From Aliiglaciecola sp. M165 (lineage in GTDB: Bacteria > Pseudomonadota > Gammaproteobacteria > Enterobacterales > Alteromonadaceae), in NCBI RefSeq assembly GCF_007197995.1, contig NZ_VKKH01000009.1, forward strand, positions 1 through 64,000: a stretch of DNA of 64,000 bases. Reading direction: 5' to 3'. Below the pieces are notes generated by a model that was not told where the DNA came from, ran no database searches, and worked only from the letters and a program-made list of their open reading frames with translations. The position numbers and the translations under genes were made by a program. Positions 2,587 to 23,327 of this stretch are shown here, piece by piece. Position 1 is the first letter of the stretch; each line of letters begins with the position of its first letter.

Positions 2587-2753
2587 TCTGTCGTTTTTCC
2601 AAGTTCAATCAATGTGACGGCGATTCTAGCACCCTCCAGACCCGACATAAACCGGTCTGCTGGGAAAAAATGCACTTACTGAACTAATTTAAAATTTGTT
2701 ATACACTAGCGCGCTTTACAAAATTAAAAAACTTACTTCGACAGGATACCTAG

Positions 2754-3251
2754 ATGGTAAAACTTCACACTAATTATGGCGTTATCACGCTTACACTGTT
2801 TGCTGATAAAGCCCCTAAGACCGTGGAAAACTTTTTAAGTTATGTACGAGATGGCTATTACGACAACACCATTTTCCATCGCGTTATCGACGGTTTTATG
2901 ATCCAAGGCGGCGGCTTTGAACCGGGCATGGAGCAAAAAACGCCAAACGATCCGATTGAAAATGAAGCGAACAATGGCGTGGCGAATAATAAAGGCACAA
3001 TTGCGATGGCCCGCACCAATGAACCTCATTCAGCTACCGCACAGTTTTTTATTAATGTCAGCGACAACAGTTTCCTGAATTTCCGCGGTGAATCAATGGA
3101 CGCTTGGGGATACTGCGCGTTTGGCGAAGTTACCGACGGAATGGACGTGGTTGAGCAAATTAAAGACGTCAAAACCAGTCGACACGGTATGCATCAAGAC
3201 GTGCCAGTCGAAGATGTCGTTATCCAAAAAGTAGAGCTAATTGAAGAATAA
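2754..3251 (+). CDS. ppiB: Peptidyl-prolyl cis-trans isomerase B (cyclophilin)
   Basis: Cytoplasmic cyclophilin that isomerises Xaa-Pro bonds during folding. At 165 residues with no signal peptide it matches PpiB rather than periplasmic PpiA. Conserved active-site segments are visible: [13 protein letters not shown] (41-53), [18 protein letters not shown], and [16 protein letters not shown]. It lies directly before lpxH on the same strand with a 46-base gap, and the two genes may be co-transcribed. The cysS-ppiB divergent order is common in gammaproteobacteria. Confidence 0.97.
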
Positions 3252-3297
3252 TTGCAAATAGGCTGGGTTATCACCAGCCTTTACCTTGAATCGATTT

Positions 3298-4026
3298 ATG
3301 ACAGCGTTCACTTATTTCATTTCTGATTTACATTTAAGTGCTGAAAGGCCAGACATTACCGAATGCCTTGAAGTATTTTTATCCGAGCAAGCTCACCAGG
3401 CAGATGCGTTGTATGTGTTAGGGGATTTGTTTGAATATTGGATAGGTGACGATGATCGCAGTGATTTTAACGAACATATAGCTTCAATATTCAAAGCCCT
3501 GGCGGATAAAGGTGTTCCTATATATTTTATCCATGGGAATCGAGACTTTTTGATCAGGCAAGCCTTTGCAAAGCGTGCCGGCATGACATTGCTGGACGAG
3601 CAACACGTTGTAGATTTATATGGAACTCCTACTCTTATAATGCACGGCGATGAACTCTGCACCTTAGATGTGGTTTATCAAAAATTCCGCAAAAAAGCCC
3701 GTGGTTGGTGGTGGCCGAGAATGGTCCTGGCATTACCGCTGTCTACTCGCAAAAAAATAGCTGAGAACGGGCGAAAAACAAGCCAGAAAAATCAATCAAA
3801 GCTAACCATGGACATTATGGACGTGACGCCAGAGGAAGTTGTAAAAGCTATGCGTGAACACAGGGTTCTGCGCATGATCCATGGCCATACCCATCGTCCG
3901 TTTATTCATCAGCATCAAGTTGACGGGAAGGATGCCCAACGCATTGTATTGGGAGATTGGTATGATCAAGGCAGTGTATTAAAAGTGTCTGCAGACTCCT
4001 TTGAACTGCAAACGTTAATACACTAA
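3298..4026 (+). CDS. lpxH: UDP-2,3-diacylglucosamine diphosphatase
   Basis: Calcineurin-like Mn-dependent hydrolase of lipid A synthesis that converts UDP-2,3-diacylglucosamine to lipid X and UMP at the inner membrane. Metal-binding blocks are in order: DLHL (10-13), GDLFEYWIGDD (42-52), HGNRDFL, HGDELCT and HGHTHRP. An in-frame TTG lies 12 bases upstream (3286). The ATG at 3298 is preferred because it begins MTAFTYFISDLHL, matching the family N-terminus. Length of 242 residues is typical. Confidence 0.96.
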   Translation: MTAFTYFISDLHLSAERPDITECLEVFLSEQAHQADALYVLGDLFEYWIGDDDRSDFNEHIASIFKALADKGVPIYFIHGNRDFLIRQAFAKRAGMTLLDEQHVVDLYGTPTLIMHGDELCTLDVVYQKFRKKARGWWWPRMVLALPLSTRKKIAENGRKTSQKNQSKLTMDIMDVTPEEVVKAMREHRVLRMIHGHTHRPFIHQHQVDGKDAQRIVLGDWYDQGSVLKVSADSFELQTLIH

Positions 4027-4041
4027 GTTTTTATCTACACG

Positions 4042-4071
4042 GTAGCATCGCAGAAGAAACTGCGATGCTAC
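4042..4071. terminator. Perfect 12-bp hairpin between convergent genes
   Basis: GTAGCATCGCAG and CTGCGATGCTAC are exact inverted copies around a six-base loop, between convergent lpxH and the GH16 gene. Neither side has a good T-run, so a bidirectional terminator is inferred from position and stem strength. Confidence 0.55.
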
Positions 4072-4083
4072 GAATTTAGAACA

Positions 4084-4956
4084 TTATTTCACGCGTTTTT
4101 CGTGTTTCACCCAATCCACTTCCATCACCCATTCGCCTGTCATTGGTGAGTCTGTGATCTTGGCGAAATTGAGAATGGCAAATAATGGCTCGGGGTACTT
4201 GTCTCCCTCGCCAACATTTCGGTATACCTCTTTGCCATCAACCCGATAAACGAGGTCACTACCTTCCCATTCAACAGAGTATTCATGATAAGCTGTTAAG
4301 TCGTTTTTGATGTCGGTTCTCAAACTCCACCAGTCTCCCTTGTCACACTCTCCTAAGCTTTTAATAGCACCCGTGGTAAATTTGTCTGCGTCATGATCTC
4401 CATGATGCTCAAAAATATCGATTTCGCCAGATCCTGTCAGCGGCCAACACACATTTTCATCCGCCTCTTGCACCGGTGATTCATTATTTTGAGCACCTAA
4501 CAGCCACCAAGCAGGAAACATACTTTTTTCCCCGCTGCTCCATAGTTTCAGTCGAGCGGTCCACCTGCCTTTAATAAACTCTTTGCGGTTTTTAGACGCA
4601 ATTCTTCCTGCAACATATGGCGTATCGGGATGTTGCTTACCAAACTTGTCGAGGTTGTCACAACTAATTGGATCGCCTATGTTAACGACTTTTAGCTTGA
4701 GTGTGCCATCGCTCACTTCTCGCGTACCGTATTCACCATTGGGAACGTAACACTGCTTTTCGTCGTTCACCCAAATTCGTTGGTCTTGCCAATTGTCTTC
4801 ATTGAAGCTGTCAAAATCATCAAAAAAGTCGACTTGCCATTCGTTGCTGTTTACAACCACTGGATCCGTTGCACTGGCATTTTCTGAAGAGTTGTCTGAC
4901 AACCCGGTGCAGCCAGTTAAAAGTAATGCAGCGAGTGTTATCGTGAGAGTTTTCAT
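4084..4956 (-). CDS. GH16 family glycoside hydrolase lipoprotein (laminarinase-like)
   Basis: Predicted surface or periplasmic endo-beta-glucanase. The start has a strong ribosome site (GGAG). A lipoprotein signal peptide ends in LLLTGC with C16 as the lipidated residue. The GH16 catalytic signature is present as GEIDIFEHHG, giving nucleophile E178, D180 and acid/base E183. Aromatic cleft residues (PAWWLLG) precede it. At 290 residues it is a single-domain GH16 without a binding module. It follows the GH3 gene by 54 bases on the same strand. The pair suggests endo- then exo-cleavage of beta-1,3-glucan; exact substrate (laminarin or mixed-linkage glucan) is inferred. Confidence 0.9.
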   Translation of the reverse strand: MKTLTITLAALLLTGCTGLSDNSSENASATDPVVVNSNEWQVDFFDDFDSFNEDNWQDQRIWVNDEKQCYVPNGEYGTREVSDGTLKLKVVNIGDPISCDNLDKFGKQHPDTPYVAGRIASKNRKEFIKGRWTARLKLWSSGEKSMFPAWWLLGAQNNESPVQEADENVCWPLTGSGEIDIFEHHGDHDADKFTTGAIKSLGECDKGDWWSLRTDIKNDLTAYHEYSVEWEGSDLVYRVDGKEVYRNVGEGDKYPEPLFAILNFAKITDSPMTGEWVMEVDWVKHEKRVK

Positions 4957-5010
4957 GGGTTCTCCAGTTAATATTTAGGTTTGCGCTATCATTTGACTTC
5001 TAGAGCGTGA

Positions 5011-6882
5011 TTAATAATTGGTGAGTCCATATCCAAATTTGAACAATGCATGCTCAGCATCTGCTTCAATGGGAATGTCTTCATACTTTTCCGGCCACGA
5101 AAACGGGGATTTGCCAACTGGTTTAAATCCATCGGCAGCAAACAAGAAGTCAGCAACTCCTGCCCCTTCAGAGCCAGGAAGCCATGCCGCAACAAAAGCA
5201 TCGCTGAGTTCCAGGTCATCTTTGATTAATAGCACCCGTCCGGAAATGAGCACAACGACCACTTTTTTATTCAGAGCTTTGCAACCAGCAATTAACGCTT
5301 TATGTTCGTCTGTTAAGTAGAGTTTATCAGTGTCACCCACGCCTTCGGCATAGGGTTTTTCGCCCACCACAACCACGGCCTTTTGTGCTTCCATTCCCTC
5401 GTAACAGCCATTTTGTGCGTATTCAACTTGATTGGCTACAGCGCTTATTCCGTCTAAAATTGTTGTGGCCCCAAGGTAGCTTTCAGTTTGACCTTGCCAA
5501 TGAATCGACCAGCCTCCACTTTGCAATCCGCTGTTATGACCATGCTCACCAACGACCGCAATGGCTTCATCCGGACTAAGTGGTAAAGCGTTATTGTCAC
5601 TTTTTAGTAATACCAAAGATTCTCTTACCGCTTGTCGTGCGACGGCTCGATGGGATGGCGCTCCGACTTTGACGGCATACTCACTTTTCGCAAAGGGGTC
5701 AGCAAATAGACCCAATTCAAACTTCATTTTTAGAATTCGTCTCACTGCATCATCAATGCGGGTCATGGGAACAATGTTGTCTAAAACTGATGCTTTAAGT
5801 TTGCCCATAAACTCTTCGTGGTTGCCTGGTTGCATGGCAATGTCGACGCCAGCATTTATCACAGTATGAGGTTCACCAAAACGAATACCGCCATTCCAAT
5901 CGGTCAGCACCACGCCATCAAAACCCAGTTCATTTTTTAGCACGTCGGTAACCAGATGCGTATGTTGGTGCATGTTAATGCCATTTACGGAATTAAAGCC
6001 GACCATAATTGACGCGATCCCCTGATTGACCGCCTCTGCGTAAGGAGGAAGGTAACGTTCACGTAGTAATTCATCGGATATGATGGCATTACCACCTTCA
6101 ATTCCGCCTTCGGTTGCCCCGTCACCAATGTAATGCTTTGCAGTGGCCGCAATGGTATGTCGATGCGCCAAACTGCTGCCTTGATGCCCTTGAATTGAAG
6201 CAATCACTGCCGCTGTTGTCAGGTCACGGTCCTCGGTAAAGCCTTCGTAAACCCTGCCCCAATGCTCGTGTTGCGGCATGGCAATACAGGGTGAGAATGT
6301 CCAATTAAAGCCAGTGCCTGCGACTTCAATCGCAGTGATTTGTGCAGCACGTTTGATAAGGTCGAGATTTCGTGTCGCCGCCATACCAATGTTGTGAGGA
6401 AATATGACTGCACCTTCAAAGGTATTTTGCCCATGCACCGCATCTACGGCGATCATCAGCGGTATACCTAAACGGGTTTTTAATGCATGGGATTGGAAGT
6501 TATTAAAATTTGCGATCCAGTCTAGCGCACTGGGGCCGGGCGTTGGACCTTCGGTATGAATAATAGAGCCTATGGCTTTTTGTTGAATAACCTCAGGGGT
6601 GACATTGTTGTGCCACACAGATTGGGTCATCTGACCTATTTTCTCATCCAGAGTCATTTCAGCCAACAGCGCATCGATGCGTTCTTGCTGAGTGTCAAAT
6701 TGACACAAGTCAAATTGCTGCGTCCCCCATTTACAGATCAACTCCGGTTGTTCTTCAGCCTGCTTTACGGGGACATTTGCGCAACTCATTAAAATGCTGA
6801 ATGAACAAAGCAGTCCGAAAGACTTCAATCCAATTGTCAATTTTGATGCACGGTGAGCAGAATCGACTTCAGCCACATTCAT
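5011..6882 (-). CDS. GH3 family beta-glucosidase / exo-glucanase lipoprotein
   Basis: Glycoside hydrolase family 3 enzyme that releases glucose from beta-glucan ends. An in-frame TTG lies 15 bases upstream, but the ATG at 6882 has AAAGGA in position and gives 623 residues. A signal peptide ends with LMSC (C34 lipidated). The substrate-binding KH pair is at 249-250, and the nucleophile is D328 in VVLTDWNGG. The second (alpha/beta sandwich) domain follows from about residue 430, with VLLKSDNNALPLSP and VVVGEKPYAEGVGD. Length fits two-domain GH3 exo-glucanases. It is the first gene of a two-gene operon with the downstream GH16 enzyme. Confidence 0.93.
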   Translation of the reverse strand: MNVAEVDSAHRASKLTIGLKSFGLLCSFSILMSCANVPVKQAEEQPELICKWGTQQFDLCQFDTQQERIDALLAEMTLDEKIGQMTQSVWHNNVTPEVIQQKAIGSIIHTEGPTPGPSALDWIANFNNFQSHALKTRLGIPLMIAVDAVHGQNTFEGAVIFPHNIGMAATRNLDLIKRAAQITAIEVAGTGFNWTFSPCIAMPQHEHWGRVYEGFTEDRDLTTAAVIASIQGHQGSSLAHRHTIAATAKHYIGDGATEGGIEGGNAIISDELLRERYLPPYAEAVNQGIASIMVGFNSVNGINMHQHTHLVTDVLKNELGFDGVVLTDWNGGIRFGEPHTVINAGVDIAMQPGNHEEFMGKLKASVLDNIVPMTRIDDAVRRILKMKFELGLFADPFAKSEYAVKVGAPSHRAVARQAVRESLVLLKSDNNALPLSPDEAIAVVGEHGHNSGLQSGGWSIHWQGQTESYLGATTILDGISAVANQVEYAQNGCYEGMEAQKAVVVVGEKPYAEGVGDTDKLYLTDEHKALIAGCKALNKKVVVVLISGRVLLIKDDLELSDAFVAAWLPGSEGAGVADFLFAADGFKPVGKSPFSWPEKYEDIPIEADAEHALFKFGYGLTNY

Positions 6883-7117
6883 ATCATGTCCTTTCAATGT
6901 TGTTGATGATTCGAATATCAGTTAATCATTCATACTAAGATTATTATTCCAGCATATCGGATGGACTTAGGTTTCACAGCGTTTTGCGATAAAAGGGATT
7001 GGTGGGCACATGAACAGGTAACAATCATGCAACAAATAGCGTGCGTGCAAGAAGTGACTTTTCCTTTTGAAACAATTAAATAATTCGCTGTCAGACAAAG
7101 CACTTTATGTTATGTTT

Positions 7118-7139
7118 TTGTAAATAAAAGCTTTTACAA
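7118..7139. promoter_or_regulatory. Palindrome upstream of glpS (candidate operator)
   Basis: TTGTAAA (7118-7124) and TTTACAA (7133-7139) are perfect inverted arms with an 8-base spacer, ending 15 bases before the glpS start. This is the last part of the 270-base region between the divergent GH3 and glp operons. Position suggests a repressor or activator site; the regulator is unknown. Confidence 0.45.
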
Positions 7140-7154
7140 CATCGGAAACACACT

Positions 7155-8264
7155 TTGGCGCTTCAGCTATTTGACCTAGACCTGCGTATTGATCAGGTTG
7201 ATTACCTGGCAAAAATCAATTTAGAATTTACGCCAGGCGCATTTAATGTGCTGCTGGGAAGAACCCTTGCCGGAAAAACCTCACTTATGCGGGTTATTGC
7301 AGGTTTAGAACAGCCAAGCAACGGAAAAGTGATGCTACATGGAAAGGATATTACTGCCCTGCCAGTGCAAAAACGTAATGTTTCCATGGTGTATCAGCAG
7401 TTTATTAACTACCCCCATATGACCGTTTGGGAAAATATTGCGTCACCTTTAAAGCTTAATCGGGTTAAACCAGATGAAATAAAACGCAGAGTAGAACAAA
7501 CCGCAGAGTTGCTGCAGATTTCCCCCTATTTGCAGCGCTTACCGCTAGAGTTATCCGGTGGTCAGCAACAACGTTGTGCCATGGCCAGAGCGTTGGTCAA
7601 AGACGCACAAATTATTTTATTTGACGAACCCTTGGTGAATCTAGATTACAAATTGCGTGAATCCTTGCGTATAGAGCTAAAGCAAATTACCCAGCAGCGA
7701 GACAGTATTGTCATATATTCAACCACTGAAGCACACGAGGCCCTGGCATTAGGCGGTCAAACAACACTTCTTCATGAAGGTAAAGTGCTTCAAAGCGGCC
7801 CTGCCCTTGAGCAGTTCCATTATCCGGTGGATCTCAATGCGGCTGATTTGTATCACGAACCGCCGCTAAATCGCCTAGCCGTTGGCAAAGCCCTCGTTTG
7901 TGCCGAACATATCAATTTGAGCGGCTTAGCTGGCGATAAATTACTTGCCAATGGCGATAGTATAATTGCCGTGCGGCCGGATCAGGTTTCCTTGCATCCG
8001 CTAGACAAAGAAAGTATGCAAATAGAAGCGGATATTGATTTGGCTGAGATAAGTGCGTCAGAGACATATCTGCATGTGAGTTTTGATTATAGAGAATTTG
8101 GGCGGTTGAACTGGGTTTTGCATTTAAATGGCATTCACACCTTTTCTAATCAGAAAAAGCTGTCTTTGTTTGTTCCCATATCAAAACTCTTTGTATTTGA
8201 CCCACAAGGCAAAGCCTTGCGTGTGCCCAGTCAAGTCAATCATGACATTGAGGGAGTTGTCTGA
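7155..8264 (+). CDS. glpS: Glycerol ABC transporter ATP-binding protein, GlpS-like
   Basis: First of two ATPases of a carbohydrate-type (CUT/UgpC-like) importer. It begins with TTG (MALQLFDLDL); no better in-frame ATG exists nearby. Walker A reads GRTLAGKT (35-42), departing from GxxGxGKS/T in the manner of GlpS proteins. The ABC signature LSGGQ (133-137) and Walker B ILFDEP (154-159) are standard. A TOBE-like regulatory domain follows residue 240. It overlaps glpT by one base (TGATGG). Gene order and the paired divergent ATPases match the glpSTPQUV glycerol importer described in Rhizobium leguminosarum; substrate is inferred from that synteny. Confidence 0.85.
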   Translation: MALQLFDLDLRIDQVDYLAKINLEFTPGAFNVLLGRTLAGKTSLMRVIAGLEQPSNGKVMLHGKDITALPVQKRNVSMVYQQFINYPHMTVWENIASPLKLNRVKPDEIKRRVEQTAELLQISPYLQRLPLELSGGQQQRCAMARALVKDAQIILFDEPLVNLDYKLRESLRIELKQITQQRDSIVIYSTTEAHEALALGGQTTLLHEGKVLQSGPALEQFHYPVDLNAADLYHEPPLNRLAVGKALVCAEHINLSGLAGDKLLANGDSIIAVRPDQVSLHPLDKESMQIEADIDLAEISASETYLHVSFDYREFGRLNWVLHLNGIHTFSNQKKLSLFVPISKLFVFDPQGKALRVPSQVNHDIEGVV

Positions 8265-9373
8265 TGGCCAATATCGAACTTCGCGATCTGGCCCATTCCT
8301 ATGATGGCAAACACTATGCGTTGGAGGCGTTAAATCATACCTGGAAACAAGGCGGGGCCTACGCGTTACTTGGTCCTTCTGGCTGCGGAAAAAGTACCCT
8401 ATTGAATATTATTTCTGGATTGATTTCGCCCTCTCAAGGCGAAGTCTTATTTGACCAGCAACGGGTCAATGAGCATTCGCCACAACAACGCAACATTGCG
8501 CAAGTTTTTCAGTTTCCTGTGGTATATGACGCCATGACAGTACGGGAAAACCTCGCGTTTCCACTTAAAAACATGCAAACAGAAAAAGCGCAGATTGAAC
8601 GTAAAGTTAACGAAATTGCGCAGCTATTGGATCTCAGCGATATTTTGCACAAAAAGGCTAAAAATCTTAGTGCCGATGACAAACAAAAGATCTCCATGGG
8701 TCGAGGATTAGTCCGAGAGGACGTTTCAGCCATTTTATTTGATGAACCCTTAACGGTTATCGATCCACATTTGAAATGGAAGCTTCGTCGCAAGCTCAAA
8801 GAAATCCATGAAAAGCTGGATATCACAATGATTTACGTTACCCACGACCAATTAGAAGCGGCGACCTTTGCTGACGAAATTGCCGTGATGTACGAAGGAA
8901 AAATCGTGCAATTTGGCACACCCCAGTCGCTTTTTGAACAGCCAAATCATACCTTTGTGGGATATTTTATTGGCAGTCCCGGCATGAATTTTTTGTCGGT
9001 AGAAAAACGAAATAACGGCGTAGCGCTTCAAGATACGCTCTTTGATCTAACAGCCGCGCAACTCGATGTAATAACGCAATCATCCAGTTCAAATATCAAA
9101 CTCGGCATTCGCCCTGAATTTATCAATATTGTTGAGCCTGGTGCACCAAACAGCTTCGAGGCAAACATTGAATTTATTGAAGATTTGGGTACGCATAAGA
9201 TTGTCACTGTGAGGTTTTTAGGGACTCGATGGCAGATCCGCGCAGCAGAACATATCCTCATTTCTGGCAATAATCTGCATTTCGAATTGCCCGCAGATCA
9301 CTTGAAGCTTTACATCGACGAGTACTTAGTCGGTGAGGCGCAATCTCCAATCGAGGGAGATTCCTGTGAATAA
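8264..9373 (+). CDS. glpT: Glycerol ABC transporter ATP-binding protein, GlpT-like
   Basis: Second ATPase of the importer, 369 residues. Walker A is canonical, GPSGCGKST (37-45), and Walker B is ILFDEP (157-162). The ABC signature is changed to LSADD (135-139), lacking the GG of LSGGQ. Together with GlpS, which has an altered Walker A but a canonical signature, this implies a heterodimer with one degenerate ATP site. The C-terminal TOBE-like region contains LGIRPEF. This GlpT is an ABC subunit, unrelated to the E. coli glycerol-3-phosphate antiporter of the same name. Confidence 0.85.
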   Translation: MANIELRDLAHSYDGKHYALEALNHTWKQGGAYALLGPSGCGKSTLLNIISGLISPSQGEVLFDQQRVNEHSPQQRNIAQVFQFPVVYDAMTVRENLAFPLKNMQTEKAQIERKVNEIAQLLDLSDILHKKAKNLSADDKQKISMGRGLVREDVSAILFDEPLTVIDPHLKWKLRRKLKEIHEKLDITMIYVTHDQLEAATFADEIAVMYEGKIVQFGTPQSLFEQPNHTFVGYFIGSPGMNFLSVEKRNNGVALQDTLFDLTAAQLDVITQSSSSNIKLGIRPEFINIVEPGAPNSFEANIEFIEDLGTHKIVTVRFLGTRWQIRAAEHILISGNNLHFELPADHLKLYIDEYLVGEAQSPIEGDSCE

Positions 9374-10238
9374 AACCCACAACAATAAAGCATGGTGGTT
9401 AGTGTTGCCAATGTTTGCGTTGGTAGCATTTTCAGCAATCATTCCGTTGATGACGGTGGTAAATTATTCTGTTCAGGATATTTTTGACCAAAATACCGCC
9501 TATTTTGTTGGCGTGGAATGGTACCAAGAAGTACTGCGAAACACGCGACTACATGATTCACTACTACGGCAATTTATCTTTTCATTTTCGGTTTTGGCCA
9601 TTGAGATCCCATTGGGTATTTTAGTGGCGTTATTGATGCCAAAGGAAGCCAATTGGAAAACATCATTAGTATTGATCTTGCTGGCACTGCCGCTTTTGAT
9701 CCCTTGGAACGTGGTGGGTACCATCTGGCAGGTGTTTGCCCGCGGTGATATTGGTTTATTTGGCTGGGCTGTTAATGCGATGGGTTTTGAATACAATTAT
9801 ACCGCAAACGCCTTAGATGCCTGGTTAACGGTATTGTTGATGGATGTCTGGCACTGGACACCCTTAGTTGCCTTGCTGTGTTATTCAGGATTACGCGCCA
9901 TTCCTGAGGCTTACTATCAAGCCGCAATGATTGACCGGGCTTCTCGGTGGGCGATATTCAGATATATTCAATTGCCGCGTTTAAAAGGTGTCTTAGTTAT
10001 CGCTGTGTTGCTTAGGTTCATGGACAGCTTTATGATCTATACCGAACCTTTTGTGTTAACGGGCGGCGGTCCAGGAAATGCCACAACCTTTTTAAGTCAA
10101 TCTCTGACGCAGATGGCAGTGGGTCAATTCGATCTCGGCCCGGCAGCGGCTTTCTCGCTAATTTATTTCATGATAGTTCTGTTGGTGTGTTGGCTGTTTT
10201 TTACCACCATCACGCATATGGATAAGGAGCGTCAATGA
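9366..10238 (+). CDS. glpP: Glycerol ABC transporter permease, GlpP-like
   Basis: Inner-membrane permease of about 290 residues with six hydrophobic segments (LVLPMFALVAFSAIIPL near the N-terminus, CWLFFTTI at the end). The EAA-loop region YYQAAMIDRASRWAIFRYIQLP couples to the ATPases. The GTG at 9366 is chosen because GAGGGAG lies seven bases upstream; it overlaps the end of glpT by eight bases. A frame-open extension to 9333 has no such site. It overlaps glpQ by four bases (ATGA). Confidence 0.88.
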   Translation: MNKTHNNKAWWLVLPMFALVAFSAIIPLMTVVNYSVQDIFDQNTAYFVGVEWYQEVLRNTRLHDSLLRQFIFSFSVLAIEIPLGILVALLMPKEANWKTSLVLILLALPLLIPWNVVGTIWQVFARGDIGLFGWAVNAMGFEYNYTANALDAWLTVLLMDVWHWTPLVALLCYSGLRAIPEAYYQAAMIDRASRWAIFRYIQLPRLKGVLVIAVLLRFMDSFMIYTEPFVLTGGGPGNATTFLSQSLTQMAVGQFDLGPAAAFSLIYFMIVLLVCWLFFTTITHMDKERQ

Positions 10239-11056
10239 TGATCGGTGCCAACGCGTTTTCCGTGCGCAAGTTGCTAGGTTTGTTGCTATACCTTTTGTTT
10301 GTATTGTTGCCAATTTATTGGTTGGTGATGATGTCTTTTAAGACTAACGAAGAAATTCTTGGCCAATTAACCCTATGGCCTGCGCAATTCACCTTTGACA
10401 ACTACGTCACCATATTTACCGATCCCTCTTGGTACATGGGCTATGTTAATTCGATGATTTATGTGGTGATGAATACCCTGATCACATTGGTTGTGGCCTT
10501 GCCAGCTGCCTATGCGTTTAGTCGTTACAAATTTGTCGGAGACAAACATCTGTTTTTCTGGCTTTTGAGCAATCGCATGGCACCTCCGGCAGTTTTTCTA
10601 TTGCCATTTTTTCAGTTGTATTCGTCGGTGGGTCTATTTGATACCCACCTTGCTGTTGCCCTGGCCCATTGTTTGTTCAGTATTCCATTGGCCGTTTGGA
10701 TCCTCGAGGGCTTTATGTCTGGCGTGCCAAAAGAAATTGATGAAACTGCCTATATTGATGGATATAGCTTTGGCCACTTTTTTGTCAAAGTCTTTGTCCC
10801 GATGATCCGCTCAGGTATTGGTGTCACCGCATTTTTTAGTTTTATGTTCTCCTGGGTTGAATTGCTGTTGGCACGAACCTTAACCTCTGTGGATGCAAAG
10901 CCCATTTCGGCGATTATGACGCGCACTGTTGGTGCGGCCGGAATTGATTGGGGATTGTTGGCCGCCGCCGGCGTGCTCACTATCATTCCAGGCATACTGG
11001 TGATCTGGTTTGTGCGTAATCATGTGGCCAAAGGCTTTGCCTTGGGCAGAGTCTAA
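10235..11056 (+). CDS. glpQ: Glycerol ABC transporter permease, GlpQ-like
   Basis: Second inner-membrane permease, 273 residues, MalG-like. Six hydrophobic segments are visible. The EAA loop is ETAYIDGYSFGHFFVKVFVP. AAGGAG precedes the start, which overlaps the glpP stop as ATGATGA, indicating translational coupling. This GlpQ is an ABC permease, not the phosphodiesterase of the same name. Heterodimer with GlpP is expected. Confidence 0.88.
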   Translation: MMIGANAFSVRKLLGLLLYLLFVLLPIYWLVMMSFKTNEEILGQLTLWPAQFTFDNYVTIFTDPSWYMGYVNSMIYVVMNTLITLVVALPAAYAFSRYKFVGDKHLFFWLLSNRMAPPAVFLLPFFQLYSSVGLFDTHLAVALAHCLFSIPLAVWILEGFMSGVPKEIDETAYIDGYSFGHFFVKVFVPMIRSGIGVTAFFSFMFSWVELLLARTLTSVDAKPISAIMTRTVGAAGIDWGLLAAAGVLTIIPGILVIWFVRNHVAKGFALGRV

Positions 11057-11091
11057 TCATCAACAACAACTATGAATAGGAACCCTATGTA

Positions 11092-11382
11092 ATGGAAACT
11101 GTCTCGTTTTTTGGATGGATGGCCTGGACTCAACCTACCGCGCTATTTTTCATCGGAATAGGGTCTATTCTTGTTTGTATGACTATTTGGGAAATCAAGC
11201 GACCTTGCACCGAACGTAAGGGCTTTTTACCCATTGCGACAACTAGAGGCGACCGTTTGTTTATCAGCTTGATCACCAGTGGTTTTATTCACCTTTCAGT
11301 GGTCGGTGCAACAGAATGGAGCATATGGACCGCTTTTGGACTGTCTGTCACCCTGTTATTGGTGACGCTGAAATGGGGTTAA
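11092..11382 (+). CDS. glpU: Small membrane protein, DUF2160 (GlpU-like)
   Basis: 96 residues with two to three hydrophobic helices (WTQPTALFFIGIGSILVCMTIW; LISLITSGFIHLSVVG; FGLSVTLLLVTLKWG). A protein of this size and sequence type sits at this spot, between the permeases and the binding protein, in glycerol ABC operons. Its role is unknown; an accessory subunit is plausible from synteny. Confidence 0.82.
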   Translation: METVSFFGWMAWTQPTALFFIGIGSILVCMTIWEIKRPCTERKGFLPIATTRGDRLFISLITSGFIHLSVVGATEWSIWTAFGLSVTLLLVTLKWG

Positions 11383-11460
11383 ATAGTTATCTCAATTTAC
11401 CCTTTGGATTCAAATAAATTCGAATAACTAGACTTTTTAGATTTGGTAAAAGGATAAAAA

Positions 11461-13185
11461 ATGAAATTAAAAATGCTACTCAATTCTGTCGCACTTGGCG
11501 TTTGCTTAACAAGCGTTAGTGTGTTGCCAGCATTAGCCGATGAACAGGCGGCGAAAAAATGGCTGGAGACAGAATTTAGTGATTCAACCTTAACGCCCGA
11601 GCAACAAATGCAGGAAATGCGCTGGTTTATCGATGCGGCCGAATCATTTAAAGGGATGAAAATATCCGTTGCCTCAGAGACCATTGCGACCCACGAATAT
11701 GAATCCAAAGTGCTTGCCAAAGCCTTTGCTGAGATCACTGGAATTGAAGTCACCCATGACTTGATACAGGAGGGTGATGTTGTCGAAAAGCTGCAAACTC
11801 AAATGCAATCGGGCCGTAATATTTATGATGCCTACATTAACGACTCAGATTTAATTGGCACCCACTTTCGGTACGGAAAAGTGGTGGCAATATCTGACAT
11901 GATAGCGACTGACGGCAAAGATCTCACATTACCCACCCTAGATTTAGACGATTTTATTGGTTTGAGTTTCACCACAGGTCCAGATGGCAAGATATATCAA
12001 TTACCGGATCAGCAATTTGCAAATTTGTATTGGTTTAGAGCGGATTGGTTTGCCCGTGACGACCTAAAAGAACAGTTTAAACAGCGTTATGGTTATGAGT
12101 TGGGTGTACCTGTTAATTGGTCTGCCTACGAAGATATTGCCGAGTTTTTCAGTTTGCACGTGAAAAATATTGATGGGCAACGTGTTTATGGACACATGGA
12201 CTATGGCAAAAAAGATCCCTCTTTGGGCTGGCGCTTTACCGATGCCTGGTTTTCGATGGCAGGCGCGGGAGACAAAGGGATCCCAAATGGGTTACCGGTA
12301 GATGAATGGGGCATTCGTGTTGAAGGTTGTCAACCAGTAGGCTCAAGTGTGGAACGTGGTGGCGCTACCAATGGTCCTGCTGCGGTGTATGCCACGCAAA
12401 AGTACGTGGACTGGTTGCGCAACTACGCCCCTCCACAGGCCCAAGGCATGACCTTCTCTGAAGCGGGACCGGTTCCCGCTCAAGGTAATATCGCCCAACA
12501 AATATTCTGGTATACCGCATTTACCGCCAGTATGAACACTGAAGGATTACCAGTGGTAAATGAAGACGGTACCCCAAAATGGCGCATGGCGCCCTCCCCT
12601 AAAGGGCCCTATTGGGAAGAAGGCATGAAACTGGGATATCAGGATACCGGTGCATGGACGTTTCTTAATTCAACGCCCGCTAAACGTCGCCTTGCTGCCT
12701 GGTTATACGCACAATTTACTGTTTCCAAAACCGTATCTTTGAGAAAAACCTTAGTTGGATTAACACCCATCCGAGAATCAGATATTGACTCTGAGCAAAT
12801 GACCGACGCGGCACCCAAACTCGGTGGATTAGTGGAGTTTTATCGCAGCCCAGCACGAAAACAATGGACACCTACCGGCACTAACGTGCCCGACTACCCC
12901 AAGTTGGCGCAATTGTGGTGGAAATATATTGCTGAGGTCGCCAGTGGCGAAAGCACTGCTCAACAAGCCCTTGACGGTTTAGCCAAAGCACAAGATCGCA
13001 TCTTGCAAAGATTGCAGCGCGCAAATGTTCAAGGTGAATGTGGACCAAAACTTAATCGACCACAAAGCGCAGAGTATTGGTTGAATAAACCGGGCGCCCC
13101 CAAAGCCAAATTGGCTAACGAAAAACCCCAAGGTCAAACCGTCGCTTACGATGAATTGCTCAAAAGTTGGCAATCTGACAAATAA
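11461..13185 (+). CDS. glpV: Glycerol ABC transporter substrate-binding protein, GlpV-like
   Basis: Periplasmic binding protein of 574 residues, larger than ordinary sugar-binding proteins and of the size of GlpV. A cleavable signal peptide ends ALA-DE after residue 26. AAGGA lies before the ATG. The mature protein starts with a helical stretch (QMQEMRWFIDAAESFKGM) and then an extracellular solute-binding type 1 fold (ETIATHEYES, FRADWFARDDL, GAWTFLNSTPAKRRLAAWLYAQ). Last gene of the importer operon. No glpD, glpK, glpF or glpR is in the window. Confidence 0.86.
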   Translation: MKLKMLLNSVALGVCLTSVSVLPALADEQAAKKWLETEFSDSTLTPEQQMQEMRWFIDAAESFKGMKISVASETIATHEYESKVLAKAFAEITGIEVTHDLIQEGDVVEKLQTQMQSGRNIYDAYINDSDLIGTHFRYGKVVAISDMIATDGKDLTLPTLDLDDFIGLSFTTGPDGKIYQLPDQQFANLYWFRADWFARDDLKEQFKQRYGYELGVPVNWSAYEDIAEFFSLHVKNIDGQRVYGHMDYGKKDPSLGWRFTDAWFSMAGAGDKGIPNGLPVDEWGIRVEGCQPVGSSVERGGATNGPAAVYATQKYVDWLRNYAPPQAQGMTFSEAGPVPAQGNIAQQIFWYTAFTASMNTEGLPVVNEDGTPKWRMAPSPKGPYWEEGMKLGYQDTGAWTFLNSTPAKRRLAAWLYAQFTVSKTVSLRKTLVGLTPIRESDIDSEQMTDAAPKLGGLVEFYRSPARKQWTPTGTNVPDYPKLAQLWWKYIAEVASGESTAQQALDGLAKAQDRILQRLQRANVQGECGPKLNRPQSAEYWLNKPGAPKAKLANEKPQGQTVAYDELLKSWQSDK

Positions 13186-13211
13186 GTTTTTTGAAAAATA
13201 ATGTTAGACAG

Positions 13212-13238
13212 TGTCTCCTTTTTTAACGTTGATACGTC
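13212..13238 (+). promoter_or_regulatory. Candidate ECF42-type promoter upstream of the YCII gene
   Basis: TGTCTC (13212-13217), a 17-base spacer and CGTC (13235-13238) resemble the TGTCGA / CGWC promoter reported for ECF42 sigma factors. The match is imperfect (4 of 6 in the -35), and it lies about 70 bases before the gene. Inferred from the presence of an ECF42-like sigma factor gene nearby. Confidence 0.3.
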
Positions 13239-13305
13239 ATTGAAATAGGCAAACAACAAAATCGTTGTTAGCCGTATCAATGAGAACTATTAAGGAAATT
13301 AAAAA

Positions 13306-13662
13306 ATGAATGACTATATGCTGATTTACAAAGGTGGTAACCCTAACTGGATGACCGAAACTTCTCCGGAAGAACTGGCTGCGACCATGGAAAAATGGGG
13401 ACAATGGATGGGTAATTTAGAAGCAAAAGGACAACTCTCTACTGGTGGTTCGCCTTTGCACTACTCTGGCAAAAATCTCACAGGTGACGGCGTTGTGACG
13501 GATGTATCTTTAGCTGAAATTAAAGAACTGGTCACCGGCTTTAGTATAGTGCGCGCAGACAACATGGACGCAGCGATTGCAATTGCCAAGGACTGTCCGA
13601 TATTTCTGTACCCTGACATCACTGTAGAAATCCGCGAAGTCGCTAACCCAGGGGCGGAGTAG
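13306..13662 (+). CDS. YCII/DGPF-related protein
   Basis: A 118-residue cytoplasmic protein beginning MNDYMLIYKGG. It has the fold pattern of YCII-related (DGPF) proteins: MEKWGQWMGNLEAKGQL, GGSPL, and LVTGFSIVRADNMDAAIAIAKDCP. The block that is normally VxDGPFAExKE reads VTDVSLAEIKE, so the DGPF signature is lost. DGPF proteins are the hallmark neighbours and targets of ECF42 sigma factors, and an ECF42-like gene lies 0.9 kb away on the other strand. Biochemical activity is unknown. A good ribosome site (AAGGAA) precedes the ATG. Confidence 0.85.
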   Translation: MNDYMLIYKGGNPNWMTETSPEELAATMEKWGQWMGNLEAKGQLSTGGSPLHYSGKNLTGDGVVTDVSLAEIKELVTGFSIVRADNMDAAIAIAKDCPIFLYPDITVEIREVANPGAE

Positions 13663-13669
13663 TACTGCG

Positions 13670-14590
13670 GCTTCATCTCCGGGCGCGTCCATTACATCAT
13701 CTCGAACGTGCCCACTACGTCATCTCCGAGCGCTCTTATCGGAGATCTCTTCATACCCATAGAGATCCCCGATCAAGAAAGTTTCGGGGACGACGTGCTA
13801 AATTAAACTTCGGGGACGAACTAATTTGCTAGCGTCGTCTCCGAACGTGCCCACTACGTCATCTCCGAGCGCGTCCGTTACGTCATCTCCGAGCGCTCTT
13901 ATCGGAGATCTCTTAATACCCGTAGAGATCCCCGATCAAGAACGTTTCGGGGACGACGTACTACATTAAACTTCGGGGAAGAACTAATTTGCTAGCGTCG
14001 TCTCCGAACGTGCCCACTACGTCATCTCCGAGCGCTCTTATCGGAAATCTCTTAATACCCGTAGAGATCCCCGATCAAGAACGTTTCGGGGACGACGTGC
14101 TAAATTAAACTTCGGGGACGACGTGCTACATTAAACTTCGGGGACGAACTAATTTGCTAGCGTCGTCTCCGAGCGCGTCCATTACGTCATTTCCGAGCGC
14201 GTCCGTTACGTCATCTCCGAGCGCTCTTATCGGAGATCTCTTAATACCCATAGAGATCCCCGATCAAGAACGTTTCGGGGACGACTTGCTAAATTAAACT
14301 TCGGGGAAGAACTAATTTACTAGCGTCGTCTCCGAACGCGTCCATTACTTCATCTCGAACGTGCTCACTACGTCATCACCGAGCGCTCCAATTACGTCAT
14401 CTCCGAGCGCTCTTATCGGAGATCTCTTCATACCCATAGAGATCCCCGATCAAGAACGTTTCGGGGACGACGTGCTACATTAAACTTCGGGAACGATACG
14501 CTAAATTAAACTTTCAAGGATGGCGCACCAGATTATACTTCGGAGACGACGTGCCAAATTATACTTCGGAGAAGACGCACCAGATTATAA
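13670..14590. repeat. Large bidirectional tandem-repeat array, locus 2
   Basis: About 0.9 kb with no gene. A core block starting CGCTCTTATCGGAGATCTCTT recurs five times, at 13731, 13894, 14033 (GGAAAT variant), 14222 and 14408, spacings 139-189 bases. Each core contains a hairpin (TCCCCGA ... TTCGGGGA). To its right are direct units of the type ACTTCGGGGACGACGTG followed by CTAAATTA. To its left are ~24-base units (CGTCATCTCCGAGCG then CGTCCGTTA), which look like the same unit in reverse orientation. Units at the right end (14505-14580) are more degenerate. Confidence 0.9.
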
Positions 14591-14594
14591 CTCC

Positions 14595-15884
14595 CTACCC
14601 CTTCTCACCTATCAACTTATTTATCTGTGACAACATGACTGCATTTTCATGCTTACTTCCGCCTTTTTTAATGGCTTCATCCGCGCATTGATGTGCTGCG
14701 TTTTTATTGCCCTTCATCGCGTACAAATGGGCAAGCGTAGCCAATGGCAGATGAGATTGTATAAAAATCGGCTCAGATTTTAGACGCTCAACGCTTTGTA
14801 TAGCTTGTTCAACTTCGCCGCAATAAGCCTGCGCGACAGCTAGGTTTAATTGAGTAACTGGTGATTTTGTTACGATAAACAATTGCTGATATAGCGCGTA
14901 TATTCGCGGCCAGTTAGTAAGTTCGAAACTCGCAGCAATGCAATGTTGTTGTGCAATACATGCTTCTAGAAAATATCTCCCTGTGCCCAGCTTGTTCATA
15001 TGTGTCGCGTAGTCTAGCAACGCCGAAGCAGAAACAATTTGCTCGCCATCCCATAAACTTCGGTCTTGAGCATCAATAGGTATATTCCTTCCTTGGCTAT
15101 CCACTTTTGATTCCGATCTGGCCATGAGGAACTGCATCAATGCACTCAGGCCAAAAGTGTCTTGATTGGCGATATTTTTTTCACTCATTAACAGTTGAGT
15201 TTGGGCCAGAGCGTCTTTACACAGCATGGTATCGGTACGATGTTTGTCACTCGTACTATGGAAACCCTCGTTAAATAATAAATACAAGGTGGTATGAACC
15301 GAATTCAACGCATAAGGTAAGTGCTGTTCTTCGGGAATACGAAATTGATGTTCCTTTAATTTTTGTTTGGTACGAAGCAAACGTTTTTTAACCGTTGCCT
15401 CGCTAAGCAACAAGGCTTTAGCAATGGCGCTGATGCTCAATCCACATAAGGTTTTAAGCATAAAAGGCAATCGATTTTGGGGAGCAATATCTTCATGGCT
15501 GCACATAAACAACATACGTAGTTGGTCATCTTGGATGCGCTCCTCAGAGAAGCAGGCATCCAATGTGCTGTTGGCTGTCCAGTCACTTTGTAGAACATGA
15601 CTAAACTCTTGTGCATATTTTATCTGGGTACGGGTTTGGCGGATCTTGTCCAGTGCGCGATTTTTTGCCACTTTGAGCAACCACGCTTTTGGGTTATCGG
15701 GCACTCCATCATGTTGCCACTGATCCAGAGCGCTGACCATCGACTCTTGCAACACGTCTTCGGCGAGTTCAAGATTGTGTGCGCCAAAGACTCGCACGAG
15801 CACTGCCAATAATTTCGGAGACTGTTGTTGCTGAATCACCGCTAACAACGAAGACACTTTGTCCGGTCTTTTTTGTACAGTCAT
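14595..15884 (-). CDS. ECF42-type RNA polymerase sigma factor
   Basis: Extracytoplasmic-function sigma factor with a long C-terminal extension, 429 residues in all. Sigma-2 spans about residues 20-80 (LAEDVLQESMVSALDQW, NPKAWLLKVAKNRALDKIR). Sigma-4 spans about 130-190 (LCGLSISAIAKALLLSEATV). The extension contains LYLLFNEGFHSTS and helical, TPR-like repeats (SPVTQLNLAVAQAYCG), as in the ECF42 group, where it replaces a separate anti-sigma factor. It faces the YCII-related gene across the repeat array. Promoter targets are inferred only. Confidence 0.9.
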   Translation of the reverse strand: MTVQKRPDKVSSLLAVIQQQQSPKLLAVLVRVFGAHNLELAEDVLQESMVSALDQWQHDGVPDNPKAWLLKVAKNRALDKIRQTRTQIKYAQEFSHVLQSDWTANSTLDACFSEERIQDDQLRMLFMCSHEDIAPQNRLPFMLKTLCGLSISAIAKALLLSEATVKKRLLRTKQKLKEHQFRIPEEQHLPYALNSVHTTLYLLFNEGFHSTSDKHRTDTMLCKDALAQTQLLMSEKNIANQDTFGLSALMQFLMARSESKVDSQGRNIPIDAQDRSLWDGEQIVSASALLDYATHMNKLGTGRYFLEACIAQQHCIAASFELTNWPRIYALYQQLFIVTKSPVTQLNLAVAQAYCGEVEQAIQSVERLKSEPIFIQSHLPLATLAHLYAMKGNKNAAHQCADEAIKKGGSKHENAVMLSQINKLIGEKG

Positions 15885-21709: not shown

Positions 21710-22459
21710 TCAGTATCCGCTGTGAAAACGAAATTCATTGTCATCACTATCGATTAACTGCGCCTCTTCTTTTGCAAAAAAATCGACGCGCTGAGTAATG
21801 TCCTCAACCGAGACTTTTTGCGCTAGGTTTAAATAATCTTGGAAATGCCGCGCTTCAGAACGCAGTAACGAGACGTAAAAAGTGTTGAGCTCTTGATCTA
21901 GGTGCGGAGCCAATTTTGCAAACCGCTCGCAAGACCGGGCTTCAATGTATGCACCACAAATCAAGGTATCTATTAGTTTTGCCGGTTCATGGGTACGCAC
22001 ATGCTTCATCATGCCTCGGGCATAGCGCGATGCAGTCAAATTGTCGTATTCTACACCGCGGCTTTGCATGATCTCCCAAACCTGTTGGAAATGATGCAAT
22101 TCTTCTTTGATCAATAACACCATTTTGCTGATCAGTTCATCACCATGTTCAAAATTAGATTTACTGATGAGTTTTTTAGATAGATTGACATGATCAGAAA
22201 AATCGCCATTGCCGACTTTACGATAAACAAAATCTTCATAGGGCTTTAGCCAAGCCAATAATGCATCACCGCTGTCTTTGTCTACCGCATAACGACGCAA
22301 TAGCAACATCGCAGTTTGCGCTGCCTTTAGCTCGCAATTTGCATGATCGACTAATAGTGTCGGCAAATTTTCGGGTTTAATGGCCTCGTCAATCCAACTT
22401 TGTGGGGTTGGGCATTTAAGGAAATCGCTGATGGGCAAAAGTAACTCAGAAATATTCAA
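21710..22459 (-). CDS. miaE: tRNA-(ms2io6A37) hydroxylase MiaE
   Basis: Non-haem diiron monooxygenase that hydroxylates the isopentenyl group of ms2i6A37 in tRNA. Ferritin-like carboxylate/histidine ligands are visible: VDHANCELKAA, KEELHHFQQV, EARSCERFA and SEARHFQDYL. Length of 249 residues is usual. The start is a TTG (MNISELLLPISDF); no in-frame ATG fits. A diverged copy of its first 46 codons lies upstream at 23187-23327, with a toxin-antitoxin module between. Confidence 0.94.
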   Translation of the reverse strand: MNISELLLPISDFLKCPTPQSWIDEAIKPENLPTLLVDHANCELKAAQTAMLLLRRYAVDKDSGDALLAWLKPYEDFVYRKVGNGDFSDHVNLSKKLISKSNFEHGDELISKMVLLIKEELHHFQQVWEIMQSRGVEYDNLTASRYARGMMKHVRTHEPAKLIDTLICGAYIEARSCERFAKLAPHLDQELNTFYVSLLRSEARHFQDYLNLAQKVSVEDITQRVDFFAKEEAQLIDSDDNEFRFHSGY

Positions 22460-22484
22460 GAAAGCATTCCAGTTTGGTTGAAAT

Positions 22485-22775
22485 TTAAAGGTGAAGACTA
22501 GGCAACATTCGCTGATGTAATATTCTTACAACAGCTACCCCATAGTTAGCAGTTTTAAAATAGATCAGATGTTTACCCTGGCGATAGTATTTGTAACCTA
22601 CTCGAATATGGTCACAGGATATTCCCTGTAAAGATGAAACTTCCAAACCTTCAAAAGCACAAACCATTTCATCAATATAATAGTTAGCTTGGCTGTTACC
22701 CCAATGTTCAAACAAATATTGCCAAATAGCTTGCAGATCCTGCTCAGCCAAAGGAGTAAGGCGGTAATTAGGCAT
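22485..22775 (-). CDS. ParE/RelE-family toxin
   Basis: A 96-residue toxin-like protein. The ParE pattern is visible: YRLTPLAEQDLQAIWQYL at the start, then HIRVGYKYYRQGKHLIYF and VVRILHQRMLP. ParE toxins usually poison gyrase, RelE toxins cleave mRNA; the sequence favours the ParE branch. It overlaps the antitoxin gene by eight bases, so the two are translationally coupled, antitoxin first. Confidence 0.92.
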   Translation of the reverse strand: MPNYRLTPLAEQDLQAIWQYLFEHWGNSQANYYIDEMVCAFEGLEVSSLQGISCDHIRVGYKYYRQGKHLIYFKTANYGVAVVRILHQRMLPSLHL

Positions 22776-23013
22776 TTTTTGCCATCATTTTTGCTTTGAA
22801 ATCGTCCACATCGAATGGCTGCGGCTTTCCACTGGCTTCACCTTCAATTAACGCTTTTCTTATGGCATCATCATGGCTATTTTTTTCCTGATCTTCACGT
22901 AAAAGCGCGCGTATATATTCGCTGTCGTTAGTATAGCGACCAGCAACAATTTGCGCTTTTATCCATTCATCTTGTTGGTCTGTAACAGTAATAGTTTTAC
23001 GAGTTGTTGACAT
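22768..23013 (-). CDS. ParD-like ribbon-helix-helix antitoxin
   Basis: An 81-residue antitoxin. The N-terminal RHH motif is RKTITVTDQQDEWIKAQI, then DSEYIRALLRED. The C-terminal acidic/basic tail (PFDVDDFKAKMMAKN) would wrap the toxin. The ATG at 23013 (GGGGGA upstream) is preferred over an in-frame TTG at 23025. A palindrome directly upstream is the likely autorepression site. Confidence 0.91.
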   Translation of the reverse strand: MSTTRKTITVTDQQDEWIKAQIVAGRYTNDSEYIRALLREDQEKNSHDDAIRKALIEGEASGKPQPFDVDDFKAKMMAKNA

Positions 23014-23027
23014 AAGATCCCCCAAAG

Positions 23028-23044
23028 GTATGAAATATTCATAC
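23028..23044. promoter_or_regulatory. Palindromic operator of the ParD/ParE module
   Basis: GTATGAA and TTCATAC are perfect inverted arms around ATA, 15 bases before the antitoxin ATG. The position is right for an RHH autorepressor. Confidence 0.7.
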
Positions 23045-23186
23045 TATTGATGAGATTATAGTTCTTTTTTAAGAGTGTTACCAAAAGTAAATATGAGATC
23101 GAAAGTTTAGTCTGTTAGGAATTTCTAAAGCATTCTTTAAACCCGATGGGATGATAAAGCCTGGCACTAAAAACACAGTTGCACAC

Positions 23187-23327
23187 TTAGGCCTTTAGCT
23201 TGCAAGTTGCATGTTCGACTAATAATGACGGCGAATATTCGGGTTTAATGACCTGTTCATTCCAGCGTTGCGGGGTTGGACATTTTTGGAAATCGCTGAT
23301 GGGTTTGAGTAAAGTACCTATATTCAA
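23187..23327 (-). pseudogene. Truncated, diverged copy of the miaE 5' end
   Basis: A second miaE start lies upstream of the toxin-antitoxin genes. Positions 23191-23327 align without gaps to 22323-22459 at roughly 80% identity over 137 bases. The frame stays open for 46 codons from the same TTG: LNIGTLLKPISDFQKCPTPQ parallels MNISELLLPISDFLKCPTPQ, and LLVEHATCKLKA parallels LLVDHANCELKA. A TAA follows at once. Protein-level similarity is retained, and the left boundary is at the start codon. This suggests a displaced or xenologous 5' fragment rather than random decay. Confidence 0.85.

What the first reader, a model, noticed from the sequence alone, without database searches (positions are those of the whole stretch)
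21710..23327. Duplicated miaE 5' end flanking a ParDE-like toxin-antitoxin module
The first 46 codons of miaE exist twice: intact gene at 22459 and a fragment at 23327, with the toxin-antitoxin pair between. The fragment is about 80% identical over 137 ungapped bases, keeps an open frame with mainly conservative changes, begins at the same TTG and stops abruptly. This is what a gene-regenerating insertion or recombination with a foreign miaE allele plus TA module would leave.
Basis: seen in the sequence. Interest (0 to 1): 0.65.

Follow-up and report, generated by a model that had tools for sequence, protein, structure and literature searches.

The report
Toxin-antitoxin cassettes landing inside miaE
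The start of a tRNA-modification gene (miaE) is a landing site for mobile DNA in Alteromonas-like bacteria, and here it holds a toxin-antitoxin cassette that brought its own replacement gene start and left the old start behind as a scar.

Summary
In detail: the first ~46 codons of miaE occur twice (137 nt, 80% identity) with an intact parDE pair between. The cause is a landing site. A subfamily of large serine recombinases occurs in 11 of 395 family genomes, 11 of 11 beside pieces of miaE. Full elements split miaE near codon 43, carry a complete miaE copy, and leave a left scar: the old codons 1-43 followed by a half-site with TGTGCA. The window's fragment ends in that scar (23176-23201). The window's genome lacks this recombinase, as do 15 of 21 scar-bearing genomes; their scars enclose other cargo. 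In the window's genus and one other, 9 of 13 such units are toxin-antitoxin pairs of four families, sometimes stacked. The window's ParE lineage was seen in six genomes, each time beside miaE. The leader and first ~10-15 codons of miaE follow the toxin-antitoxin type; the gene body does not. How recombinase-free units insert is unresolved. My paper searches found no description of this site.

The parts
21710..22459 (-). intact miaE (249 codons, TTG start); body does not follow the TA type
22415..22484 (-). 25-nt leader plus about the first 15 codons of miaE, which came with the ParDE cassette (right edge approximate)
22331..22333 (-). codon 43 (GAG) of the intact gene: inferred crossover point of the landing site
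22485..22775 (-). ParE-family toxin; stop 25 nt before the miaE start
22768..23010 (-). ParD-family antitoxin
23055..23084 (-). promoter-like site upstream of parD (10 of 12 matches; the region has no more such sites than its shuffles)
23176..23201 (-). right part of the scar: core dinucleotide (AA here, GA in most scars) and the incoming half-site, TGTGCA at 23180-23185
23191..23327 (-). miaE 5' fragment, the previous start of the gene, left as scar

Best explanation
miaE codon 43 is the chromosomal attachment site of a family of mobile elements that encode a large serine recombinase. Recombination there splits the gene and leaves the old codons 1-43 joined to the element's half-site (the left scar). 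To keep the host's MiaE, incoming DNA supplies a new gene or gene start, read from upstream genes of its own. The window carries the scar and, between it and miaE, a recombinase-free unit: parD-parE and a new miaE leader and start, so parD, parE and miaE are now one likely operon. The TA pair is probably kept because recombination between the two miaE starts would otherwise delete the unit cleanly. Shown: scar structure, recurrence, recombinase at the same site, linkage of TA type with the gene start. Inferred: recombinase activity, the operon, the addiction role, and the route by which the recombinase-free unit came in, which I leave open (rivals 1 to 3 are routes and overlap with this statement).
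For: Recombinase subfamily: 11 of 395 genomes at E <= 4e-113, 11 of 11 beside miaE pieces; resolvase, recombinase and zinc-ribbon domains. Joined half-sites of 10 elements: 8 have their best symmetry centre on the GA of codon 43, 14-19 of 24 pairs. Fragments without recombinase carry the same half-site: TGTGCA exact in 16 of 18 such rows of alignment A2 (A2 leaves out seven fragments, see Tried and rejected). Scar model: 21 of 325 genomes have a full-length match of 28 bits or more (17 of them gave rows to the model, 4 are new); nearly all other listed matches, at intact genes, stop at position 28-30. ParE lineage: 6 of 6 at miaE, next homologue 71 bits. ParDE DNA is 80.2-86.5% identical among G000, G005, G006 and G283 (two genera), whose miaE DNA is 68.5-74.5% identical. 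Codons 1-10 of 11 starts: 83% within TA type, 51% between, permutation p 2e-4; codons 61-248 of 9 genes: p 0.17. Gap to miaE codon 1: ParDE 21-27 nt, CcdAB 8-16, recombinase 1-17.
Against: No recombinase of this kind in the window's genus (0 of 9) and no 3' remnant of miaE here. The right boundary is not at codon 43: of 10 gene pairs scanned for one break, six break best at codons 8 to 39 (two with very wide support), two at codons 194 and 234, two have no real support. Codons 21-43 are closest to the same genome's gene in 12 of 18 recombinase-free scars (one tied), so copying between repeats or homologous recombination has happened. Two of ten joined sites are not centred as predicted (G025, G171); G171 improves from 8 to 12 of 24 with its rightmost scar. 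I had cut the pieces so that the predicted centre lies in the middle. In six stacked arrays the rightmost scar scores best in four. The fragment of G007 lacks the half-site, and G008 and G347 have a TA before miaE but no scar in the stretch held.
Confidence: 0.72

Rival explanations
1. Route 1: the TA units spread without any recombinase. Donor DNA carrying fragment, TA and miaE start has miaE homology on both sides, so ordinary homologous recombination after DNA uptake inserts it into any miaE and duplicates the start again; the half-site is a passive relic of an old founding event.
For: 15 of 21 scar genomes lack the recombinase at miaE; right boundaries vary; the G283 and G294 starts agree closely for ~13 codons only.
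Against: Scar and gene share near-identical codons 21-43 in G006 (second scar) and G005 (second scar), 94-97%, so that stretch of the scar looks host-like and the left junction sits at the core; the half-site stays recognisable in most scars.
Confidence: 0.4
2. Route 2: the window is a collapsed full element. A recombinase element with a complete rescue miaE landed, then recombination with an uninserted or remnant miaE removed everything but the TA next to the rescue start.
For: Several full elements have the same order with the recombinase in the TA's place (G348, G105, G342, G318); G295 has scar, recombinase, miaE and no 3' remnant in the stretch held.
Against: Gene bodies next to TA do not follow TA type, and G003 and G006 have close bodies under different starts; collapse onto a 3' remnant that begins near codon 42 cannot restore host codons before it. 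No locus with both a TA of the four families and the recombinase was seen among those compared.
Confidence: 0.25
3. Route 3: recombinase-free units are mobilised in trans by recombinases of co-resident elements, as cis-mobilisable elements are.
For: Shared half-site and locus; stacked units.
Against: Needs recombination of a scar-type site with the intact site, which serine recombinases are not known to favour (recalled); no circular form shown.
Confidence: 0.25
4. Simple local tandem duplication of the miaE start followed by TA insertion.
For: One direct repeat.
Against: Fragments end at one codon plus a conserved motif that is not miaE, with many cargoes, in nine genera.
Confidence: 0.02

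Closest known systems
Integrative and mobilisable elements with a serine recombinase (review PMC5704250, passages seen)
   Same: Serine recombinase; Mob_Pre/MobV relaxase in G342 and G105; insertion inside a conserved gene; restriction-modification cargo in G342 and G074
   Different: The review's passages speak of insertions that disrupt dispensable genes; here the element carries a full copy of the gene that it splits
Cis-mobilisable elements and tandem accretion (same review, passages seen)
   Same: Recombinase-free units stacked at one attachment site, with left scars
   Different: No right site retained in the TA units; a new gene start is supplied
Chromosomal integron cassette arrays rich in TA pairs (recalled)
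   Same: Several TA cassettes in a row at one site
   Different: The scar is a piece of a protein gene; I did not search for attC sites or an integron integrase
ParDE, CcdAB, Phd-PIN and RelE/HTH toxin-antitoxin pairs
   Same: Family domains (CcdB below the Pfam cut-off)
   Different: Their position as upstream partners of miaE

Membership tests
ParDE toxin-antitoxin | ParD-family antitoxin followed by an overlapping ParE-family toxin gene | tested here: met
   NCBIfam has a ParD model for the antitoxin, none for the toxin
ParDE toxin-antitoxin | toxicity and neutralisation | not testable with these tools
   needs an experiment
Large serine recombinase element (the related full elements) | resolvase, recombinase and zinc-ribbon domains in one long protein | tested here: met
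   3 of 6 proteins with all three at E <= 1e-3; the other 3 lack one, and one zinc ribbon is below its cut-off
Large serine recombinase element (the related full elements) | near-palindromic donor site with a central dinucleotide shared with the target | tested here: met
   8 of 10, pieces cut by hand around the predicted centre
Large serine recombinase element (the window itself) | own recombinase gene | tested here: not met
   none in G000 at E <= 1e-60
Cis-mobilisable element (the window itself) | both attachment sites kept, recombination genes lost | tested here: not met
   left scar present; no 3' remnant found
Integrative and mobilisable element (related full elements) | relaxase | tested here: inconclusive
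   Mob_Pre in G342 and G105; none at E <= 1e-3 in three candidate ORFs of G348, G318, G074

The most novel reading that the evidence does not exclude
miaE hosts an integron-like array system without an integron: small TA cassettes, each ending in a replacement leader and start for miaE, move between species into one codon of this gene, stack in order, take over its transcription, and hold themselves by addiction against deletion through the very repeat that they create.
Probability: 0.35. Interest if true: 0.8.

Novelty: new variant of a known kind. Interest (0 to 1): 0.62.

Why it matters
It turns an odd duplicate into a testable insertion system: a tRNA-modification gene whose start is replaced repeatedly by mobile DNA, elements that carry a whole spare copy of the gene they break, and TA pairs placed directly upstream of that gene. 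It also gives a set of recombinases with predicted 48-bp donor sites and one conserved target, and a setting in which to ask why chromosomal TA pairs persist.

Tried and rejected
Tyrosine recombinases: a narrow motif scan of ORFs in the fetched loci printed nothing; the ORF lists then showed serine recombinases. Phages and plasmids as source: only distant recombinase hits, at most 33% identity in the listed rows, in 16 plasmid and 19 phage records; no relative in the viral contigs. Decay gradient along arrays: holds in four of six, so not used as proof. Right boundary exactly at codon 43: not borne out. Scars between the older TA remnants of G283: none scored by the profile; one faint look-alike by eye in the stretch printed. 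Family-wide junction pattern: 9 places in 8 of 395 genomes, one of them (G121) with no miaE in the 12 kb read, and one control match in G082. Paper searches gave no paper on this site: searches returned 0, one and four, unrelated by their titles (listings only); in PMC10083194 the word miaE occurs 0 times.

Rows to discount or dropped: G348 is out of register by one codon, and G006_f1, G294_f and G305_f2 have indels that disturb their codons 1-32. Alignment A2 leaves out the fragments of G007, G328, G227, G259, G025 and G342 and the middle one of G171. In one search I listed 12 loci as scar-free; G150 has a miaE fragment on another contig, so I count 11. Seven of the eight named loci are the same contigs, by length, as unnamed ones already in hand; only L073 is new.

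Full report
What is there. In the window miaE (21710-22459, minus strand) is preceded by parE (22485-22775), parD (22768-23010) and a second copy of the miaE start (23191-23327), 80% identical over 137 nt. The fragment's frame meets TAA right after codon 46, followed by GTGTGCAAC.

It recurs. Of 9 genomes of the genus, 8 have miaE and 5 have further partial miaE matches upstream of the full gene (G000, G003, G005, G006, G007). The fragments stop near the same codon, and in all but G007 a shared motif that is not miaE follows, while the DNA between fragment and gene differs: ParDE in G000, G003, G005, G006; CcdAB in G006; a PAS/MCP gene in G005; a regulator and a desaturase-like ORF in G007 (the desaturase name is from reading only). 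G008 has CcdAB before miaE and no scar found. G002 has a divergent full miaE, 8 kb, then a second miaE, and no scar. A typed pattern made from these junctions, with up to 3 mismatches, found 5 places in 4 of 9 genomes, all at these loci, and no control match.

The recombinase. Eleven genomes gave both a 5' fragment and a 3' remnant beginning near codon 42 (G018, G025, G074, G105, G171, G227, G318, G328, G342, G348, G392). In eight the serine recombinase (545-566 aa in the seven aligned) lies directly beside the fragment; G328 has a more distant one there; G025 has it at the other end; in G171 none was found. Each also carries a complete miaE: next to the recombinase (G348, G318, G342, G392, G105), in the middle (G018), or at the far end (G074, G227). 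In G182 and G315 a complete copy lies inverted beside a 3' remnant (in G315 only codons ~198-242), with no recombinase seen in the stretch read. Relaxase and restriction genes were confirmed in some. In G182, G018, G074 and G002 the complete or first copy is more distant from the window's gene than the remnant or second copy. The recombinase subfamily is found in 14 of 395 genomes at E <= 1e-60; the 11 at E <= 4e-113 all lie by miaE pieces; the three weaker ones (E ~1e-62) show none in the ~1.5 kb flanks held.

The site. Reading left and right junctions together, the crossover falls on GA of the GAG codon 43. Joined donor sites of 10 elements were tested for symmetry about that point: 8 of 10 have their best centre there (14 to 19 of 24 pairs, shuffle p 0.001 or less); G025 has 12 of 24 (p 0.0075) with a better-scoring centre elsewhere; G171 has 8 of 24 (p 0.17). 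I had cut the pieces so that this point is central, so the scan is not blind to it. For G171, which has three scars, the rightmost gives 12 of 24 against 8 and 4, as expected if the newest element is rightmost. That Glu43 binds iron in MiaE is recalled and was not tested.

The window carries the left scar. A profile of 25 left scars matches window 23169-23325 through into the half-site (105 bits), while intact genes stop at profile position ~137-138, a few at 149-152; the forward sequences give 93 matches (intact genes included), the reversed ones 0. The window is one of the 25 rows, but its fragment was found by miaE similarity. With a 44-position model, 21 of 325 family genomes have a full-length match of 28 bits or more, in nine genera; 17 of the 21 gave rows to the model, and G025, G082, G124 and G315 are new to it; G125 and G055 have weaker or partial matches. 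Of the 21, 6 have the recombinase at miaE (G018, G025, G074, G105, G295, G318) and 15 do not; G305 has a weaker kind on another contig. TGTGCA is exact in 16 of 18 recombinase-free rows and 6 of 7 recombinase rows.

TA cassettes. Four TA families occur between scar and miaE: ParDE, CcdAB (CcdB below the Pfam cut-off), Phd-PIN and a RelE/HTH pair. In the window's genus and genus g5, of 13 units bounded by a fragment on the left (G000, G003, G005 two, G006 two, G007, G283, G294, G305 three, G315), 9 hold a TA. In G283 four pairs follow each other: Phd-PIN, a cut CcdAB, a broken ParDE, a scar, then RelE/HTH with a broken toxin frame, then miaE. ParE homologues at E <= 1e-12 occur in 93 of 395 genomes, but the window's lineage (105 bits or more, 58-100% identity) in six, all beside miaE; the next is 71 bits, 41%; where the weaker ones lie I did not examine. 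ParDE DNA is 80.2-86.5% identical among G000, G005, G006 and G283, whose miaE DNA is 68.5-74.5% identical; ParDE of G003 is more distant (66-69%) than its miaE (70-79%). So ParDE of the first four has most likely moved between species at this locus.

What came with the TA. Eleven miaE starts abutting a TA were compared. Leader (24 nt): 60% identity within TA type, 25% between; codons 1-10: 83 against 51; codons 1-15: 79 against 58; each p 2e-4 by label permutation. Codons 21-43 of the 11: 74 against 73, p 0.22. For the 9 intact genes: codons 1-15 p 0.001, codons 21-43 p 0.018, codons 61-248 73 against 71, p 0.17. TA type partly follows genus, but the gene bodies show no such difference. G006 and G283 show the succession: the scar to the right of their ParDE bears the ParDE-type start, and the gene after the next TA bears another. 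The window's start thus belongs to the cassette, and the fragment is the previous start. The right edge is not at codon 43: of 10 pairs scanned for one break, the best is codon 8 (G000/G003), 13 (G283/G294), 29 (G006/G002), 34 and 23 with very wide support (G003/G006, G003/G002), 39 (G000/G005); G294/G324 and G283/G305 break at 194 and 234, and G000/G006 and G005/G283 have no real support. In 12 of 18 recombinase-free scars codons 21-43 are closest to the gene of the same genome (one tied), in recombinase loci in 1 of 8 (one out of register). A host stretch of about codons 11-43 therefore seems to exist twice. Site-specific insertion plus later copying, or homologous recombination with the miaE pieces as arms, would both give this; I cannot separate them.

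Why TA and why adjacent. The old promoter presumably stays with the fragment, so the gene needs a new one. miaE codon 1 lies 21-27 nt after parE (4 genomes), 8-16 after ccdB (2), 1-17 after the recombinase gene (6) and 75-154 after the RelE/HTH pair (3); codon 1 is the alignment register, not always the real start. In 11 loci without any fragment the nearest same-strand ORF of 60 aa ends 62-883 nt away (8) or is missing within 900 nt (3), and none has a TA of the four families at E <= 1e-6. An operon is inferred. A promoter-like site before parD exists, but the region has no more such sites than its shuffles. Recombination between the two starts would remove the unit and restore miaE; a TA would punish that. 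This is inference; that a TA pair stabilises an island is in print (PMC8978831, title and start of abstract seen).

Known or new. Serine-recombinase elements in conserved genes and accretion of decayed elements are known (PMC5704250, passages). I found no description of miaE as such a site and none of elements with a full spare copy of their target (one search, 0 papers); the library lacks most subscription papers.

Noticed in passing
L048 (G283), 4265-7291: Four toxin-antitoxin pairs in a row before miaE, three of them damaged, with only one scar recognised by the profile.
   Followed up: partly
L023 (G002), 6139-15825: Divergent full miaE whose first ~20 codons resemble the second copy's, then 8 kb with a very long PAS/GGDEF-like protein and a transposase-like ORF (named by reading only), then a miaE whose first codons are replaced by short repeats; no scar half-site.
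   Followed up: partly
L041 (G182), L050 (G315): Complete miaE copy inverted relative to the 3' remnant, so direct-repeat recombination cannot collapse the element.
   Followed up: no
L033 (G328), 1802-15162: A more distant serine recombinase at miaE with two different 3' remnants, suggesting two successive elements.
   Followed up: no
L089 (G305 contig 12): A weaker-scoring serine recombinase with no miaE in the short flanks held; its own target was not sought.
   Followed up: no
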